A DNA stretch of 64,000 nt from Aquila chrysaetos chrysaetos (Eukaryota > Chordata > Aves > Accipitriformes > Accipitridae). The position numbers and the translations under genes were made by a program. Shown here piece after piece: positions 17,465-38,499 of the stretch; positions within the stretch are counted from its first letter, which is position 1; each line of letters opens with the position of its first letter. Below the pieces are notes generated by a model that did not search any database, was not told the DNA's origin, and saw only the letters and a program-made list of their open reading frames with translations. Where the stretch lies: contig NC_044016.1 of assembly GCF_900496995.4 (NCBI RefSeq), positions 21,866,932-21,930,931 on the forward strand. Direction: 5' to 3'.

Positions 17465-20400
17465 CTGTCAGAGAGGAGAGGGAAGGAAAAAAAAGAGAAA
17501 AGGGGTTAATGTTTGTGATGGGGGTGCAAGTAGGACAGGGAAGGGAAGGAAGGGAGGTGGCTGATGTGTTTAAGAGCACATGGTGTTAAGACATGGCATG
17601 ACATCACTGGTGGGGTGAAGTGCTGTGCAGATGGGGCAAAACAGCTGAGAATCTCCACCCATGAATGGGTCGATAAATTCTATTCCCCCAGGCTCACTTA
17701 CACAGGGTGGGGGCAATACTGGTACAGGGGTAAATTCAGGAGCAGAATCAGAGGTTTCCTCACAGATGAGCTGAGTGTCTTGTTTGCACTCTCTCACACC
17801 ATGCACACATAGATACACACAAACACACAGAAAAACAAGGCTAAGCAATGCATGCAGAATGACACACTCCCTCAGCTCTCCACCTATCCTGTTGTTTGGG
17901 TTGGAAGCAGTGCAGACAACACAGCCTCATGCAGGCAAGAAGGTGAAAAGAAAGTGCCTCTCATTCCACTAGCTGCCAAGAGCAGGGGTTAGCACCAGGG
18001 AACAGCAGCAGCAGCATGAAGAAGCAGCAGGAGAAATGAGAATTTACCCTCCCCAGTAGAGCCCAATTCCAATTCTACAAGAAAGAGCATGAGGAACTTC
18101 AGCTTAACCAGCTTTTTCTCTGGAAACAGGTAAGCTACCACTCCTATGACTCCTTCCCATCTTTCTCGCAAACACACCAGCTATGGAAACCTTCCCCAGT
18201 GCCAATTAATCCCACCACAGAGAGGAACTAGTAAGAGAAACTAGAAAACCCCTTCTGACATCATGACTTCTTTGGGGTACTCTTTGTTTTTTCTTTGTAT
18301 TTGTTACTATTTCTCACCCTTCAAACTCTGTAGGGTAATCTCCAGTTATTCTGGAGTTTGGGAACAGAGGCAGAGGGAAAAGTTAGGTCTGGTCTCACAC
18401 TTCAGAGGTTATGCTCACTGGGAGAAGTTTAACTCCAGAAGCTGCTCTATTCTGGCCCTCCATCAATCACTTTCCCACTGAAATTACAGCACGGAAGAAA
18501 AATCCTCTGTATACAGAGCAGTTTCCACCACACTGGCAGTGCAAACACCTCTCTGGTTTGGGCACAAAGCCTTTTCACACCTAAAGGAAGCACTTGCTAC
18601 TTGTAGCAGCCTTAGTCACCTAGCCAATTCCAGGCAGGCAAATGGAGGCAAATGGAAGTCTCTTTCAGGGTGTAGCCACAGAGGACCCTGGATCTCTCTC
18701 CCTTACTCTCTCCCATCCAGCCACTGCCACTGCAATACTCTGCTGACAGGAGGAATCACCTGTATCTCTGTGAAAGGGACCCGAGTTCAGAGTCACAGCC
18801 AAGGGCCCAATAGCAACCCCATTTCTATGTCTCTCTCTGGATAGGTAGGATGATCCCACACCAGAGATGTACACGCAGGTGGTGCGAGTCAAGAGACCCC
18901 ACTGAGTTCACCAAAGCGCTCAGGTGAGAACCAGGAATCGGTTTCTGCATGTCTATGCCACAGATGGTGCATGACAGGTAGCACTCAAATGACACATGCA
19001 CAGCATGGATCTCTGAACAAACACTAACCACACAGTGTCTTTTCATCTCCCACCTCACACCTGAAATACAGACCTCTGCCTGTCCTTCACCCAGAGACAA
19101 ACTGAATCCTGCTGTATCCCAGTCACAGCTCTGAGTGCAGCCCCTCAAACCACAACTCTGGCCAAGACATGGACAAGGAACTGTGAGCACAGTGCAAGAG
19201 GACAGAGTGCTCTCCCTGGCTTTTAGAAGAACAAAGAGGCAAAGGAGAATGTGGGGAGGCTCCTGGCCTGGCTTTCCTCACTCTGCACACAGCAGAGTGT
19301 CCACAAGCCGCATAAAAAGGGCTTGGAAGACAGGGGTGGTCAAATCCTAGTCAGCTAAGGATTTGTCTTTGTCAGTATGCTCAGAGTTGCATACAGATAA
19401 AGTACGGAGGGCTACAGACTCTCCCCCTGGCTACCTCAGCAACATGAACTCCGTTATCTTGTTCTATGGGAAAGGATACCTTAGATACAAATGCCCTGAA
19501 TCTGGGAGCCATCCCCATCCAAGTCCTGACAGCACATCTGAAACGCACAGCCGCCCTTTGACACAGGGAACCTCTGTCCTCATCTCAGTTAGCCCCTCTG
19601 CCCTCTGGCCCACGTAGGACAGAGAAAAGAAGTAATCATATAGCACTGGTGCCAGAAGTCAGCAGGAAGCAAGCTCCCCCCTCTTTCTCTTGCTCTCTCT
19701 TTCTCTTTGTGTGTTTCTCTTTCATCCTTCAGGACACAAACCTGCAAGTGCGCTCGTTTAACTCAAGCTGCCTCGACTTGCAACGTGAGTCTGTGAATTT
19801 GCAGGAACATTTACAGGTCTGGGGATCTTGTACAAACAAGTGCTTTCTCCTCTCTGAGCAAGGCTCACAGTGACTGCAAAAAGGCAAAAGGAAAGATGTC
19901 TAAGCTACAGCGCTTCAGCAGAAAGAAAATACACATGCAACACCCTAAACATCAAAGCAATCCCCTTGCCCCCTCCCGCAGCCCCCATGCTGCCCACTGG
20001 AGCGTCGCGGGCTGATGGATTTTCCAGCAGCACCCCGGCAGTCCCAGGACAGCACCCCCTTGCATTAGCGTAAAAAGAAAGAAAACAGGCTCTCTGCACA
20101 GTATTCACAAATGCTGCATTGGATCCATCGGCACAGGCCAGAGGGAGGAAGAAGAGGAAAGCAAGGATGGGAAGGTGAGAGGTCCCAACCAGCTACTGAT
20201 GTATCAACGAAAGGAGTTCTCTGAAGTGGGCTATTTGAGTAGAAAGAGGCCAGTGGCTAAACGAGTTAAATACACAGGGTCTCTCCTCCCCTGGAAAGCA
20301 GCTGGGCTCCAGCATCACATGCTTGCCCCTGCAGCCTGCACTGCCCTCCTTTCTGTAAGCCCCATCCCAACCTTGCCACCTAGGAGTCTCCTACAGAGGA

Positions 20401-23400: not shown

Positions 23401-26400
23401 AAGCCAGCAAGTACTCACTTAAGCAGCAAGAAAAAAAAATTAATAATAAAGAAAGGCAGCAATTTGCAGTAACCAGAAACACCCCAGGAAGAGGGAAGGG
23501 AGAATGGGGGCTGCACCTTGAATCCATTCTGGTAGGACACACACGACGGGACTTCCCTGACTCGGGATAAAGCATTAGGAATGACTGCCATGGTCGTGCG
23601 TCATGCAAGCTCCAGGTCTGGCGTATGAAGGAAGGACCGTCAGATCTGGGTTTCTGTGCCCACCTGGAACGGATTCAGAGTGTCGCCCCATGCACTATCA
23701 TATGCCATTTCCAAAAACACCTTCTCAAAGTAAGTACCTCCAACCAAAGAAAAGGGCAAGGGGCAGTGGGGAGAGGAAATGCCAACCAACCACCAAAAGA
23801 GAAAGGAGGAAAGGCTTGTCACTTACTTTTCTTGTTTGTTTTTGACATCTTTCTTTGGTCTGTGGGGGAAGAGAGAACAAAGGCCTCATTAGAAGGGAGC
23901 TTACTATATATGCTTCCAGTATTATCCCCAGTTCCCGCCAAGTCCAGGGAAGGACATGTACAGCTGGCATTGCAGGATGCCCATGGCACAGGTACAGTGG
24001 TCCTTCTCAAAGTGTTTGTTCTCCTGTTGCACCTCGCTGGCAGCCAGTGCCAAAAAAAAACAGGTTTCAGGCTAGCATTGTCCACCTGTGATAACTAGAG
24101 ATGGAGGAGCCTCGCCAGCAAAGGACTTCTTTTCCCAGGCTCAGCCATCCCACTGCAAACCAATTGAGGAGACTGCAGAAGCCTCTGCACAACAGTCCCA
24201 ACCCAATGGCAAAAAAAAGGAAAGGCTCAGAGTAAGTTTATTGCAAGAGGAACCAGTGCTGCTCCATTCTCACCTGCAGTCACATTTACTGTGCTGTAAG
24301 AAGCTCATGTGCGCTATGTGCTGACTCTGATGGGGTTTAATTCTCATGATCTGGAATGAAAGAAACAGAAAGGGTCACTGCCCATTCACTATTTATATTC
24401 ACAGCTCCAAATAAGCCTGCTGCGCAGCAAAGCATTTGCACCCCAGGTGCTCCTGGGAAGAGCATGGCAGAGTTTGAGCTGGCTTTGAGGCCCCATTCTC
24501 CCAGTCAGGGAAGGCCTTTGATCACAAGCAAGTGGCAACACAAGACTTGTGCCAAAGCTCTGTTTGCTCATGCATGCAAGGTGCCAGCACTGGTGGACTG
24601 CCTTGGAGACAGGCATGAGAGAGGGCATAACACCATAGCAAGGTTCTCACTGAGCCGTCCCTGGTCGATCCTAGAGAGACAGTAACAGGGCATCCAGCCT
24701 GCTCTCACGTAGAAGCATGCTTCAGTCTAACGCAGAGGCCCAAAGCAAAAATACCATATCCAACTCCTTTTCCCTAAGCCACCGTTCCTTCCCAGCTGAC
24801 ATCTCACTTTCTCAGTGACTTGACACACAACGTAGATTTGGTGATCTGTGCTTAAAACAGCCCTGCAGAACCAGACATTGCCCATCCCCCATCCCCAGAT
24901 GCCTCCAAGGAAGCTATATGAGAAGCGATGCATGTATTGTCACAGTCTCTCAACCCAGAACCCGGCTGGACCACTAGCTCTAGCACTTGCACCAGAGATC
25001 TGCTCAAGTGCCTCTGACCCTTTACAGGCATGCAGGCATACCAGCCAAAAACTGTAATTCAGCAAGGAATGGTAGTAAGAAACCCATCCCTAGCTACACC
25101 ATGCTAGTATGCTCTAGCCCAGGCTGGAGCCTGCAAGTAGAAAAGCAGTACGGCGAATCATGGAAGGGCACAGACAGGTTCTCCACCGCTGTTCAAACAC
25201 AGCTCAAATGACAAGTAAAAAGAGCTTGCTGGTTGATCACTTAGTACTGCATGTCTCTCATCTATATCAAAAAGTGATGGCAATATTTACAGTGGCCATT
25301 CAAGAGGCTGAGGGACAAGTAGGTGAGGCAGCTATGGGTTAAAGGTAACGGGTGCCGTTGTGGACACAAGCTGGCATCCAGGCTGGCAGACAAGGGCAGT
25401 GACAAAGCTCTCTAAAGCAAGTCTGCATCTTCCCCATGTGCCCAGCCTTTGCTATCCGGGCCATCTCTGTCTCTTCCAAGGAGCGAATTCAGCAGCCTCC
25501 AAACAAAGGAGGACGCCCAGAGGCAGAAAGGCTTTTCCACCTGACACTGAAGCAGTGTGTTTCTTAGAGCCCCCTTCCACCCCTGCTGTGCCAATGTAGC
25601 TAATGACCCAAATCCCCCTGCTCTGTTGGTAAAAGCTGACCTCACATGCCCTCCGGGAGAGAGTACTGACAGGCTTTCCCCTTTTGCACTACTCAGCTGC
25701 CTTCAGAGCAACAGCTGTCTGGACCAAACACAGAGTTAAGGTGGAGCAAGGGCCCAAGGAGCATCTTCTTTGGAACCTCAAAGATAATAGCACCAGAAAT
25801 GTCTTTTGCACTCTCTGCTTTGCAGAAATGCTCATTTGCATGCCCCTAGCTACTGTATTTGGGCACTAGCGAGGTCAGAGAGAAAAAACAGATTCTCATC
25901 TTAGCCTTGAATAGACACAGGCAACTCATCTTTTAATGCTGCATGGTGTAATGCTGGGCACAAGGGTCAGGAGAGAGGCAAGCCCCCTGATCTGACAATC
26001 TCCAGTTCCCTGGGGTAGGCTGCCCTCCCTCTGAATTAGCTGGGACCTGGGACTTGGGGTGGCTGTGATGGCTGACTTGCTTCCTTCCACCCAAGCATGC
26101 CAGCTTGCAAGATGGGCCCTCACCTCCATCGTGACGTTGTACACATCCACAGGGACACATTCTAGGCCCTCATCGCCGCAGCAACCCGCACATCTCATCA
26201 GAGGCACACAGGATGGCTTGAATATGTACTCCACCTCATCAGGGTACTCCTGGAAAATGTCCACCAGGGTCTCAATTGTCCTGCAGAAGCTGCGCTCATA
26301 GACTTCCAGGAATTTGATAACTAAAAGGAGGAATGGAGGAAATAAGTTAATGCAAACTTAGCTCAAGAACGACTAGTGCTTCACCCCTTAAAATGAGCCA

Positions 26401-35400: not shown

Positions 35401-37551
35401 CCCCCTGCCACCTTCACCAGAGGAGCACCGTGATTCCTGCATCCCTCCTCCTTCACCTTCAGGAAAGCTGCCTGACACGTGCTGGACCCCACTTTCCCAA
35501 CTCAGCCTCTGCCAGGGCTTTTATTTAATGCTCGCCAACGCGCCTGGCTAGCTAGATAGGTTTTATTCAGCGTGACAGCCAGATTAACAGTACAGATAAA
35601 TATTATCATCAAAGCACAAAACCCTAGTCCCGGCGTGAAGAGTCATGCCTTCTGCCATGCCCAGAGTCATCGTCAAGCTGCCTACGTGAGATCTGCTGGT
35701 ATTTCTAACGTTCCCATCACCGTGGTGCCTGGGCGATCAACAGACAAATAAGGACAGAACCGAAGGGCAGACCTCACCGCTGGTCTGCCTGAGCACTTAT
35801 ATGGCCCACATCACCCAGCTATCTGAACATCTCACCATCTCTCATGTATCTACCCCCCGCAACATTTCCCCCCAACCCCACCGACACCTCATAATTCCCC
35901 CCTACTTTTTTTCCCACCGTTACCCTCTTTCTTTTCTCACTGGCACCATCATCCTGCCTAGGAGAAAAAGACAGCACAAGGCTTTTAAGCTACTCCTAAG
36001 GACAGACAGACCCGGACTCTACCTGATCTGCCGTTTCCTCCTCTGGGGAAGAGGAAGGGGAGGGGAGAAGGAGCAAGGGGAGGGTTAAAGGGTATTATCA
36101 CTAGACACCGATACAGAATTGTCTAGCCTATAGCCGGGGAACAGATGCTACTGTACAAGTTTACTGAAGAGCTGGGAGGCAAAGAAACCCCCGTTTTAGG
36201 TCATGGTGGAAAAACTCTTGGGAGAGTGGAAAGAATTGTCCCACGAGCCAAATCTGGCAGGCAGGCAGCAACGGAGCTGCTCTGTGCCACAATCGAGTGA
36301 GAGCTGCGCCTCGCTTCCCATGGAGCACTGCCTAATGTGTGGCTGTCACTGGAGAAAGTAGAGATATAACAGGCTAGAAACAAAGCGTGCAGTTCCTGCA
36401 TGACTTCAGTTACAGCTGAAATGGCTCCTAACTGGGGAGTTACCTTCCAGCATTGGTGCTGAACAAACAATGTGAATAACTGATTAGTTTGCAAGTGACG
36501 TTTATTTTCATGATTGTGGGAGATTATGTGGCCCACGTTCTCTCAGAGTGCCGAGGAGAAATGGCAGGAGAGGACTAACCTGTTATAGCCTTTAAAACAT
36601 AATCCATGCCCATCTAGCGAACAGCCACTTTCACGTGGGCTCTCTGTCTAAACCCCTTAATATCTCTTGGCAACACAGCCCTCTCGGCTCTTTAGAAAAC
36701 AGATTTCTAAGACAGGTTTGCACAGAAAGCTGTCTTTCTTTTTTCTTAAAAAAAAAAAAGAAAGAAAAGGAGGAAGAGTTGATTTCTAATCCCTCAGGAA
36801 TGACAATGAGGCAAAAGTAAAAGTGACTGAGGAGGAAGAGAAGAGAAAAATGCGCAGTTTTGTAATCTCGGTGCAGTAGATATGTATTTTGATTTTTTTT
36901 TTTCAATCTGGAAGAAATTCAGGATCCATTTTGTCCTCTTTGATCTCTATTTGTTTTTCCAGCTAGGTATTTTGAACTCCACTCGGCGGCACGAACCCGA
37001 GCTGGGACCCAAGGCAAATACCGCTGAAACACCCTTTTGCAATGTCAGGAGACCCGAGGACGGCAGGCGAGGCTGATGCAAGAAGCCAGCGCGCTGCCTC
37101 CCAGCCCCGTGCCGCGCCGCCCGCCGGCCGCAGCGCCCGGGGCCCGGCCGCGGCCCCGCCGCCCCGGGAGCCCCACGCCGGGGACGTGCAATGCGCGCAC
37201 ATGTGCGCGGGCACTCCGCACGGCACTGCCGGTTGCTCCGGGGGCCTGCGAAGCGCAGGGCAGCGCTTTCCCCCCCGCTGCAGCAACTGCACGCACACGT
37301 GTGTGCGCTGCAGGCACCCAGCCGGACCCAGTGCCAGCAGCGCGGCGGCACCGCACCGAGCAGGTGGGAGGCAAAGGGGGGGGGGGGGGGGAAAAAAAAA
37401 AAACCGGGAGGGAAAAGTATTTTCCTCCGCGCCCCCCCCCCCCCCCCCGGTACGCGGGGCACAAAGCCCCCGTCCCGCCGCTTACCTCCGCGCTCTGCAG
37501 ATAGAGGAGCGCCGCCAGCCCCCAGTGGATCCAAGTCAGCAGAAAGTTCAT
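17443..37551 (-). CDS. VEGFA: VEGFA coding sequence, eight exons joined, 216-residue precursor
   Basis: Secreted cystine-knot growth factor that dimerises and binds VEGFR1, VEGFR2 and neuropilins to drive blood-vessel growth. The join, in transcript order, is 37551-37486, 31549-31498, 26320-26124, 24350-24274, 23859-23827, 21076-21005, 19873-19742, 17464-17443, totalling 651 nt including TGA. Every intron is GT..AG and the frame stays open across all junctions. Residues 1-26 form the signal peptide, with cleavage expected between A26 and A27 as in human. Residues 52-130 hold the eight conserved knot cysteines (C52, C77, C83, C86, C87, C94, C128, C130). N101-V-T is the conserved N-glycosylation site. 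Residues 142-166 are the basic heparin-binding block of exon 6, 167-210 the cysteine-rich exon 7 domain, and 211-216 the CEKPRR tail. Skipping exons 6 and/or 7 keeps the frame and gives mature lengths 190, 166, 146 and 122. Identification is secure; the isoforms expressed are inferred. Confidence 0.98.
17465..19741 (-). other. VEGFA: VEGFA intron 7
   Basis: A 2.3-kb intron with donor GTTTGT and acceptor TCTGACAG. I see no gene in it. Confidence 0.88.
19742..19873 (-). CDS. VEGFA: VEGFA exon 7 (neuropilin/heparin-binding domain, residues 166-210)
   Basis: A 132-nt exon, the same length as human exon 7, with acceptor TTTTTGCAG and donor GTTTGT. It encodes the eight-cysteine C-terminal domain: C168, C171, C186, C188, C190, C197 and C209 here, with C211 in exon 8. 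In human, this domain with the C-terminal arginine binds heparin and neuropilin-1. The donor GTTTGT is a weaker match than those of the other introns, which fits regulated skipping. Confidence 0.98.
19874..21004 (-). other. VEGFA: VEGFA intron 6
   Basis: A 1.1-kb intron with donor GTACGT and acceptor TTTGCAG. It holds a (CA/CG)n alternating tract at about 20,598-20,636. The first codons are open in frame to a TAG, so retention would truncate the protein. Confidence 0.88.
20598..20636. repeat. (AC)n/(CG)n tract in VEGFA intron 6
   Basis: ACACACACACACGCGCGCAC and following repeats; an alternating purine-pyrimidine tract with Z-DNA potential. Confidence 0.9.
21005..21076 (-). CDS. VEGFA: VEGFA exon 6 (alternative, heparin-binding, residues 142-166)
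   Basis: A 72-nt exon, equal in length to human exon 6a, encoding [18 protein letters not shown] and then YKPPS. The basic run (residues 143-160) is the matrix and heparan-sulphate retention signal. Exon lengths keep the frame if it is skipped; the junction residue then becomes N142 instead of K142. The donor is GTACGT, the same unusual donor I recall for human exon 6a. The acceptor is preceded by a pyrimidine tract of about 100 nt. Without splicing, the frame continues eight codons to a TAG. Confidence 0.95.
21077..23826 (-). other. VEGFA: VEGFA intron 5
   Basis: A 2.75-kb intron, GTAAGT to CTTCCAG, ahead of the alternative exon 6. Its last 100 nt are almost pure pyrimidine on the sense strand. 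Long open frames here (for example 22,356-22,988) look like chance; they have no recognisable domain. Confidence 0.88.
21079..21180 (-). promoter_or_regulatory. VEGFA: Extended pyrimidine tract before VEGFA exon 6
   Basis: About 100 bp with only a handful of non-purines on the plus strand, so nearly all C/U in the transcript, ending U-run then CUUCCAG. This is far longer than a normal polypyrimidine tract and suits repressor proteins such as PTB. It may govern inclusion of the heparin-binding exon. Confidence 0.7.
23827..23859 (-). CDS. VEGFA: VEGFA exon 5 (residues 131-142)
   Basis: A 33-nt exon with acceptor CCCACAG and donor GTAAGT. It encodes the end of R131, then [10 protein letters not shown] and the first two bases of codon 142. 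It is one codon longer than the 30-nt human exon, which fits the one-residue-longer isoforms (122/146/166/190) reported for birds. In human this segment contains the plasmin-sensitive linker between the receptor-binding and heparin-binding parts. Confidence 0.96.
23860..24273 (-). other. VEGFA: VEGFA intron 4
   Basis: A short 414-bp intron, GTGAG to CCCACAG. I see nothing else in it. Confidence 0.9.
24274..24350 (-). CDS. VEGFA: VEGFA exon 4 (residues 106-131)
   Basis: The 77-nt exon matches human length. Acceptor TTCCAG precedes ATC ATG AGA, and the exon ends TGCAG before donor GTGAG. It encodes [19 protein letters not shown] followed by HSKCDCR. It supplies the last two knot cysteines (C128, C130) and the basic KPHQ loop that contacts VEGFR2 in human VEGF. 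Confidence 0.98.
24351..26123 (-). other. VEGFA: VEGFA intron 3
   Basis: A 1.8-kb intron with donor GTGAGG and acceptor TTCCAG. I see nothing else in it. Confidence 0.88.
26124..26320 (-). CDS. VEGFA: VEGFA exon 3 (cystine-knot core, residues 40-105)
   Basis: The 197-nt exon, the same length as in human, has a CTTTTAG acceptor and ends GAG before donor GTGAGG. It carries most of the receptor-binding cystine-knot domain: C52, C77, C83, C86, C87 and C94. It also has the CAGCC knot motif (human CGGCC, so one G is A here) and the glycosylation site N101-V102-T103. The exon ends in phase 0 at E105. Confidence 0.98.
26472..26499. repeat. (AC)n microsatellite in VEGFA intron 2
   Basis: An uninterrupted AC dinucleotide run of about 28 bases. 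Confidence 0.95.
29600..29720 (-). repeat. MIR-like SINE relic in VEGFA intron 2
   Basis: The plus strand reads TTCACAGAGGAGAAACTGAA, then GTACAGAGAGAGGACCTCCA, then AGGTCATACAGGAGG and ending in GTCCTGATTCCTAGC. It follows the inverted MIR core closely. Confidence 0.65.
31185..31850. promoter_or_regulatory. Second CpG island, covering VEGFA exon 2
   Basis: About 660 bp of extreme G+C with many CG pairs around exon 2 (31,549-31,498), set in ordinary intronic DNA. Long open frames on both strands (for example 31,181-31,846) are explained by composition. It may be a conserved intragenic regulatory island or an alternative promoter; the sequence alone does not decide. Confidence 0.8.
31498..31549 (-). 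CDS. VEGFA: VEGFA exon 2 (residues 23-39 plus first base of codon 40)
   Basis: The 52-nt exon has acceptor TTTGCAG just upstream and donor GTAAG at 31497-31493, the same length as in human. It encodes [17 protein letters not shown] and the first base of V40. The sequence around A26/A27 fits the signal-peptidase site, so the mature chain should begin APALGD. It lies at the edge of a second, very GC-rich island. Confidence 0.97.
37194..37209. other. Perfect 16-bp palindrome in VEGFA intron 1
   Basis: CGCGCACATGTGCGCG, self-complementary over its whole length and wholly alternating purine-pyrimidine. A second, 10-bp palindrome CACACGTGTG with an E-box core lies at 37,294-37,303. Confidence 0.85.
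37376..37448. repeat. G16-A12 and C17 homopolymer pair at the start of VEGFA intron 1
   Basis: G16 at 37,376-37,391, A12 at 37,392-37,403 and C17 at 37,432-37,448 on the plus strand. In the transcript this is a G17 run 38 nt past exon 1 and a C16 run 95 nt past it, able to pair. Homopolymer lengths may be inexact. Confidence 0.9.
37486..37551 (-). CDS. VEGFA: VEGFA coding exon 1 (signal peptide, residues 1-22)
   Basis: The exon encodes M1 to E22, beginning [10 protein letters not shown] and ending LQSAE, which is most of the signal peptide. The ATG at 37551-37549 has A at -3, a good initiation context. The exon ends GAG followed by donor GTAAG (37485-37481), in phase 0. Its 66-nt coding length equals human exon 1. 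It lies in the main CpG island, and the intron begins with unusual G and C runs. Confidence 0.98.
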
Positions 37552-37739
37552 GGTTGCCGGCGCACGCCGCGGAGCGGGGCCCGCCGCGCTCCGCCTCGCC
37601 GCCGCCTCGCCGCCGCCGCCGCCCCGCCGCGCTCTCGCCCGCGCCTCCTCCGTGCCCGCCGCCGCCTCCTGGGGTGCCGCCGGCCGGGCGCTGCGAGGGG
37701 CTCCGGGGGAAGGGGGGTTCCTCTTCAGGGTCTCCGGTT

Positions 37740-37751
37740 TCACCCCTCCAT
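37740..37751 (-). CDS. Three-codon upstream ORF in the VEGFA leader (Met-Glu-Gly-stop)
   Basis: ATG GAG GGG TGA on the minus strand, 200 nt upstream of the VEGFA ATG and out of frame with it. The human leader, from memory, has ATG GAC GGG TGA about 190 nt upstream, with similar flanks (GGGCT before the ATG). Its conservation in a fast-changing GC-rich leader suggests selection. A short uORF in the human IRES-A region has been reported to control isoform-specific translation. Confidence 0.6.
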   Translation of the reverse strand: MEG

Positions 37752-37976
37752 AAGCCCGGCTCTCCGCCGGCCCCCGCTGCTGCTTTCGGTGGGCGCTCCG
37801 CCGGGCCGAGCGCACGCTCCGCGGCCGCCCCGCCGCCGCCCGGCCCCCGCCGCCGGGCAGTCCGAGCTCCACAGCGGCGCCCGTCCGCGGCCGCTCTCCC
37901 CGCGCCGGGGCAGGCAGGCACCCGCGCCGCGCTCGCTCGGTTTCGCGCACTCTCGCCAAAGTTTGCGCGGAAAGTT

Positions 37977-37985
37977 TCAATGCAT
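37977..37985 (-). CDS. Two-codon upstream ORF in the VEGFA leader (Met-His-stop)
   Basis: ATG CAT TGA on the minus strand, 434 nt upstream of the VEGFA start. It is also the tail of a longer open frame on this strand, so if the transcript starts above 38,642 an ATG there would read through in the same frame to the same TGA. I see no match to a human uORF at this point, so it may be lineage-specific or neutral. Confidence 0.35.
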   Translation of the reverse strand: MH

Positions 37986-38499
37986 CTCTTTTCCTGCGCG
38001 CCCTCTTCGCGGCGGCTGCCTCCGGCGACTCTCCGAGCCGGGGTCGCCTCCCCGGAGGGAAGGGGCTGATCCCGCCGCCGCTCGGCCCGACCCCTCTCCG
38101 CAAGTCGGGGTGGTGGTGGCGGAGGGGACGAACAGAGCGCTTTCCGCCTGCCCTCTCTGTCTCTCTCGCCCTTTCTCTGTCCACCGCTTTAAAAAAAAAA
38201 AATAAGAAGTGATGTAAAAAAAAAAAAAGAGAAAAAATCCAAACTGTCTAGAGAGAGAGGGAACTGGGGCGGGGGGAGGCTCTGCAGGAAAGGGAGGAAA
38301 AAAAAATCCCAGTGGATCAAAGTATAGGTGGGGAAAAAAATAAATTAAACGAGAGGATAAAGCAAGGCGGCAAGCCAACAGCAGGTCCCGGTGCCCGGGG
38401 AGGGCTGCTCCCGCGGCGCGCTGTCCCCCGCCGGCGCGGCGTGCGCTCCTCGCCCCCGGCGCGGCGGCACCGGCGCTCCGCGCACTCCAGCGGCGGCTC

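What the first reader, a model, noticed from the sequence alone, without database searches (positions are those of the whole stretch)
37740..37751. Three-codon uORF conserved between this species and human VEGFA
The minus strand has ATG GAG GGG TGA, 200 nt before the VEGFA ATG. The human leader, as I recall, has ATG GAC GGG TGA about 190 nt before its ATG, also preceded by GGGCT. The protein is too short to matter, so start, length and stop are what is kept. That points to a translation-control device older than the bird-mammal split.
Basis: partly seen in the sequence, partly recalled or inferred. Interest (0 to 1): 0.7.

Follow-up and report, generated by a model that had tools for sequence, protein, structure and literature searches.

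The report
Known VEGFA mini-uORF, in a sauropsid
A tiny three-codon reading frame sits upstream of the blood-vessel growth gene VEGFA in this bird-like genome, at nearly the same place as a known control element of the human gene, so it is probably an old, shared translation brake rather than a new kind of element.

Summary
ATG GAG GGG TGA lies on the minus strand at 37751-37740, once in the window, 200 nt before the VEGFA ATG. The gene is VEGFA. The human counterpart is published: a review (PMC3783158, passages) describes one short human uORF at AUG 852, 186 nt upstream, inside IRES-A, translated, "highly conserved between species"; mutating its AUG raises VEGF121 only. The uORF sits in a different frame relative to the VEGFA ORF (200 vs 187 nt), and the in-frame extensions align no better than shuffles, so L-VEGF protein conservation is not the cause. 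Against homology: with the 12 nt masked, flanks alone paired the two uORFs in 0 of 16 alignments. No other sauropsid could be tested. Most likely it is the orthologue of the known human uORF; spread across amniotes is plausible but unproven.

The parts
37740..37751 (-). three-codon uORF ATG GAG GGG TGA (Met-Glu-Gly-stop); start context -3 C, +4 G
   Evidence: read directly; likely orthologue of the human AUG 852 uORF by position and sequence
37740..37760 (-). conserved block GCCGGGCTTATGGAGGGGTGA, 19/21 identical to the recalled human leader
   Evidence: best 21-mer of the last 700 nt; 8 of 2000 and 5 of 2000 shuffles reach 19/21
37977..37985 (-). second, two-codon uORF ATG CAT TGA; start context -3 G, +4 C; 434 nt before the main ATG; the recalled human leader reads TCG CAC TGA there
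   Evidence: it overlaps the second-best conserved 21-mer (37983-37963, 17/21), but the A and T of its ATG lie outside that block
37486..37551 (-). coding part of VEGFA exon 1 ([22 protein letters not shown]), followed by GTAAGC
37552..38247 (-). upstream extension of the VEGFA frame, open for 232 codons before the ATG; counterpart of the human L-VEGF frame by place, not by sequence
26120..26330 (-). VEGFA PDGF/VEGF-domain exon (approximate borders)
   Evidence: (PF00341, 2.3e-21)
19730..19880 (-). VEGFA heparin-binding exon (approximate borders)
   Evidence: PF14554, 4.9e-30

Best explanation
It is the sauropsid orthologue of the published human VEGFA uORF (AUG 852). A scanning or internally recruited 40S subunit sometimes starts at this AUG, which has a mediocre context (-3 C, +4 G). 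It reads three codons and stops. The 40S then either leaves, or resumes and restarts at the VEGFA AUG, which has a good context (-3 A), 188 nt after the uORF stop. The effect is a mild brake or filter on VEGFA translation that can change with isoform and stress. Shown here: sequence, place, block conservation and change of frame. From the literature on human: translation of the uORF and its effect on VEGF121. Inferred: that it acts the same way in this species, and the leaky-scanning and reinitiation steps.
For: Same 12-nt form except one base, same length and stop, similar distance (200 vs 187 nt), same -3 C and +4 G. Best 21-mer of the last 700 nt at 19/21, reached in 8 of 2000 (last 320 nt) and 5 of 2000 (last 700 nt) shuffles. 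A 3-codon uORF within 13 nt of the human place in 3 of 5000 shuffles. The one unmasked global alignment pairs the two uATGs. Human uORF described as translated, conserved between species and active on VEGF121 (review passages). Mouse has the same 12-mer as human. Short uORFs permit reinitiation depending among other things on their length and the distance to the main ORF (PMC5972666, passages).
Against: With the 12 nt masked, the alignment put the window uATG 36 nt off (12 of 16 runs) or in a gap (4 of 16), so flanks alone do not prove homology. At k=18 the block is less striking: 135 and 138 of 2000 shuffles. The unmasked alignment did not line up the second conserved block (TGAAACTTT), so it is not reliable over the whole leader. 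The human leader is recalled, not fetched. One species only. No translation data. The reported human effect is on one isoform, which plain leaky scanning does not explain.
Confidence: 0.75

Rival explanations
1. The block is conserved for another reason (a transcription-factor site in the GC-rich promoter-proximal region, or an RNA structure or IRES-A element), and the start-stop pair is carried along.
For: The match extends upstream of the ATG (GCCGGGCT). The region is about 77% GC (37500-37999) and strongly folded (-114 kcal/mol for 212 nt).
Against: The predicted folds around the motif differ between the two species (mean unpaired probability of the 12 nt 0.30 in the window, 0.52 in recalled human). 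The match falls off after the stop codon: the next bases are AACCG against GGCGG, and the best 27-mer is 22/27.
Confidence: 0.15
2. The two uORFs arose independently; the likeness is chance in two GC-rich leaders.
For: Masked alignment does not pair them; some uATG within 13 nt arises in 389 of 5000 shuffles.
Against: 3-codon form within 13 nt in 3 of 5000 shuffles; 19/21 block in 5 to 8 of 2000 shuffles.
Confidence: 0.08
3. The nucleotides are conserved because they code for part of L-VEGF/N-VEGF, the CUG-started N-terminal extension.
For: The VEGFA frame is open for 232 codons upstream in the window and 183 in recalled human; the review speaks of high conservation of N-VEGF between mammals. 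A short stretch, ALKL, is shared in frame near -430 (window) and -390 (human).
Against: The motif is read in different frames (200 vs 187 nt; TAT GGA GGG GTG vs TCA TGG ACG GGT). The two extensions align no better than shuffles (score 64, reached by 96 of 300). No in-frame CTG lies near -540 in the window.
Confidence: 0.02

Closest known systems
Human VEGFA uORF at AUG 852 (Bastide et al. 2008, not held; described in review PMC3783158, passages)
   Same: three codons, same start and stop (human letters recalled), similar distance (200 vs 187 nt), within 300 nt of the main AUG where human IRES-A lies, same -3 C and +4 G
   Different: second codon GAG instead of GAC, base before ATG is T instead of C, different frame relative to the VEGFA ORF, and a second mini-uORF upstream that the recalled human leader lacks
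Reinitiation-permissive short uORFs (class described in PMC5972666, passages)
   Same: very short, non-overlapping, 188 nt from stop to main AUG
   Different: no reinitiation assay; not a start-stop uORF; context is not strong, so the DENR-MCT-1 class reported for human cells does not fit

Membership tests
VEGFA AUG 852 uORF | lies in the VEGFA leader, about 186 nt before the main AUG | tested here: met
   200 nt before the VEGFA ATG; gene identity; that the stretch is transcribed here is assumed
VEGFA AUG 852 uORF | three codons ending in TGA (human form recalled; mouse form from primers) | tested here: met
   ATG GAG GGG TGA
VEGFA AUG 852 uORF | homologous position to the human uORF | tested here: inconclusive
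   19/21 block and one unmasked alignment support it; masked flanks pair them in 0 of 16 runs
VEGFA AUG 852 uORF | only uATG of the leader (the review calls the human uORF unique) | tested here: not met
   two uATGs between 38600 and the main ATG; the true transcription start here is unknown, and uniqueness describes the human leader rather than defining the uORF
VEGFA AUG 852 uORF | translated, and represses the VEGF121 isoform | not testable with these tools
   needs ribosome profiling and reporters
DENR-MCT-1 dependent start-stop uORF (human cells) | AUG directly followed by stop, in strong Kozak context | tested here: not met
   two codons between start and stop; -3 is C (definition)

The most novel reading that the evidence does not exclude
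The VEGFA mini-uORF is an amniote-wide device kept as start, length and stop while the reading frame around it drifted. In sauropsids a second two-codon uORF (ATG CAT TGA, 434 nt before the main ATG, better -3 base) was added or kept, making a two-step reinitiation relay that ties VEGFA output to stress such as hypoxia.
Probability: 0.12. Interest if true: 0.5.

Novelty: new member of a known kind. Interest (0 to 1): 0.27.

Why it matters
VEGFA dose is tightly controlled, and this uORF is a known part of that control. If it is shared by birds and mammals, chicken cells and embryos become a direct test bed. The frame difference would show that selection acts on the uORF or its nucleotides, not on the L-VEGF protein that overlaps it in human.

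Tried and rejected
Overlapping L-VEGF coding as the cause: rejected on the frame difference and lack of protein similarity in the main frame. In the same call some off-frame pairs scored above most shuffles (the human frame shifted by 1 against the three window frames: scores 106, 130, 116, reached by 5, 2 and 3 of 300; the human frame shifted by 2: 13, 34 and 16 of 300). Because one human frame matches all three window frames about equally, I read this as low-complexity composition, not coding; this was not tested further. A conserved RNA family: 0 Rfam matches at gathering threshold. A conserved fold: the two predicted folds differ. G-quadruplexes: no stretch of four GGG runs with loops of 1-7 nt in either leader; GG-type stretches in both, not followed. 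uATG depletion: 2 observed against 2.7-2.8 expected in the window (P 0.43-0.48); 1 against 4.5 in the recalled human leader (P 0.025). Exon 1 with intron read-through found no VEGF chain in the PDB, only weak antibody matches (best E 0.081). Six other window ORFs gave no Pfam family at E 0.01.

Other vertebrate copies in the collections: 0 in viral contigs; 39 loci in genome contigs, all titled bacteria or archaea. None of the 39 matched the leader by blastn at 1e-3; one tblastn match to exon 1 at E 0.78 is taken as chance. These collections hold no vertebrate genomes by design, so this is no evidence of absence.

Literature; 84 papers, 15 listed, 2 opened (PMC3783158; PMC9024919, which has no 'uORF' or 'conserv' in its text); 7 papers print ATGGACGGGTGA; I opened 4: two give mouse Vegfa primers, two are sequencing-index oligos; 3 not opened; 15 papers, 2 opened (PMC4419486, names Vegfa once, as a hypoxia-response gene, not for a uORF; PMC9082881). 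('VEGF, uORF, chicken'): 9 papers, 1 opened (PMC5799362), nothing on this uORF in the passages; 13 papers with related 12-mers, none with ATGGAGGGGTGA; one newly opened (PMC10162797, a chicken ANKRD1 primer), two opened before, 10 not opened. (phrases such as 'VEGF-A uORF'): only the review; 380 papers, 10 listed, 1 opened (PMC5972666). ('VEGFA, uORF, evolution, birds'): 4 papers, none opened. PMC4890304 on vertebrate uORF conservation has no 'VEGF' in its main text. All papers were seen as passages, none read whole. In these searches I saw no paper on the sauropsid uORF; the original 2008 paper was not readable here and may show one.

Full report
What is there. The window's minus strand carries VEGFA. 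Exon 1 begins [22 protein letters not shown] at 37551 and is followed by GTAAGC. Further exons lie at about 26.3-26.1 kb, 24.3 kb, 23.9 kb and 19.9 kb. The domain exon matches PF00341 at 2.3e-21 and the heparin-binding exon PF14554 at 4.9e-30. The 66 residues of the domain exon match PDB chains named vascular endothelial growth factor A best (2.8e-34), ahead of placenta growth factor (1.3e-26). The species was not identified. The exon 1 protein resembles chicken VEGFA as I recall it, so I call the window sauropsid, probably bird; no call tested that.

The uORF. ATG GAG GGG TGA occupies 37751-37740, once in the window, 200 nt before the main ATG. The start context is CTT ATG G (-3 C, +4 G). The main start has AACC ATG A (-3 A). 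Between 38600 and the main ATG there is one other uATG, at 37985: ATG CAT TGA, two codons, with G at -3. The transcription start in this species is unknown.

The human side. A review of VEGF-A mRNA control (PMC3783158; passages found by term, not the whole text) states that the human 5'UTR is 1038 nt and the first CUG lies 539 nt upstream. It says a unique short uORF begins at AUG 852, 186 nt upstream, lies in IRES-A, is translated cap-independently and is highly conserved between species. Mutating AUG 852 increased VEGF-A121 without effect on 165 or 189. The original (Bastide et al. 2008) is not held. It is 1038 nt long, has a single ATG at 852 and an in-frame CTG at 499, 540 nt upstream; the CUG context CGCGCUGA printed in PMC9082881 is also there. 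That agreement supports the recall but does not replace a database copy. Mouse Vegfa primers printed in two papers contain ATGGACGGGTGA.

Is the likeness more than chance? In a scan of ungapped blocks within 60 nt of equal distance from the ATG, the uORF block is the best 21-mer of the last 700 nt (19/21). The second-best location, at 37983-37963 (17/21), overlaps the ATG CAT TGA uORF, though the A and T of its ATG fall outside; recalled human reads TCG CAC TGA there. Shuffling the human leader gives 19/21 or better in 8 of 2000 (last 320 nt) and 5 of 2000 (last 700 nt); at 18 nt the same test is weaker, 135 and 138 of 2000. A 3-codon uORF within 13 nt of the human distance occurred in 3 of 5000 shuffles of the window's last 500 nt, within 30 nt in 10 of 5000, and any uATG within 13 nt in 389 of 5000. 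Against this, when the 12 nt are masked in both leaders, 0 of 16 alignments (four lengths by four scorings) put the uORFs together: 12 are 36 nt off and 4 place it in a gap. So homology rests on the block itself.

Why would it be kept? In human the motif overlaps the L-VEGF frame, so protein coding could conserve it. The window speaks against that across this distance: 200 and 187 nt differ by 13, so the motif is read TAT GGA GGG GTG here and TCA TGG ACG GGT in human. The two in-frame extensions align no better than shuffled ones (score 64, reached by 96 of 300), and no in-frame CTG is near -540 in the window. Some off-frame pairs did beat most shuffles (2 to 5 of 300 for one human frame against all three window frames), which I take for low-complexity composition. 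The predicted fold around the motif is not shared. What remains shared is start, length, stop and the upstream GCCGGGCT. The simplest reading is a short uORF that some ribosomes translate and from which some resume. The short length and the 188-nt spacing are compatible with reinitiation in general (PMC5972666, passages). The DENR-MCT-1 start-stop class described for human cells does not fit, as the uORF has two extra codons and lacks a strong context. How the human uORF comes to affect one isoform only is left open in the review.

Verdict. The element is the likely sauropsid form of a published human uORF already described as conserved. The claim that it predates the bird-mammal split is likely but rests on one species here. 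The modest new points are the frame argument against coding conservation and the second mini-uORF.

Noticed in passing
37977-37985 (-): A second mini-uORF, ATG CAT TGA, with G at -3, overlapping the second-best conserved block of the leader (17/21 with recalled human, which lacks the ATG).
   Followed up: partly
37552-38247 (-): The VEGFA frame is open for 232 codons upstream of the ATG, as for human L-VEGF (183 in the recalled leader), but without protein similarity beyond shuffles and without a CTG near -540. In-frame CTGs lie at -939, -366, -309 and -177. A second frame is open for 212 codons, so openness in this GC-rich stretch means little.
   Followed up: partly
37376-37450 and 38185-38310 (-): Long homopolymer runs (G, T and C) early in intron 1 and runs of T in the leader; their lengths may be uncertain in the assembly.
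   Followed up: no
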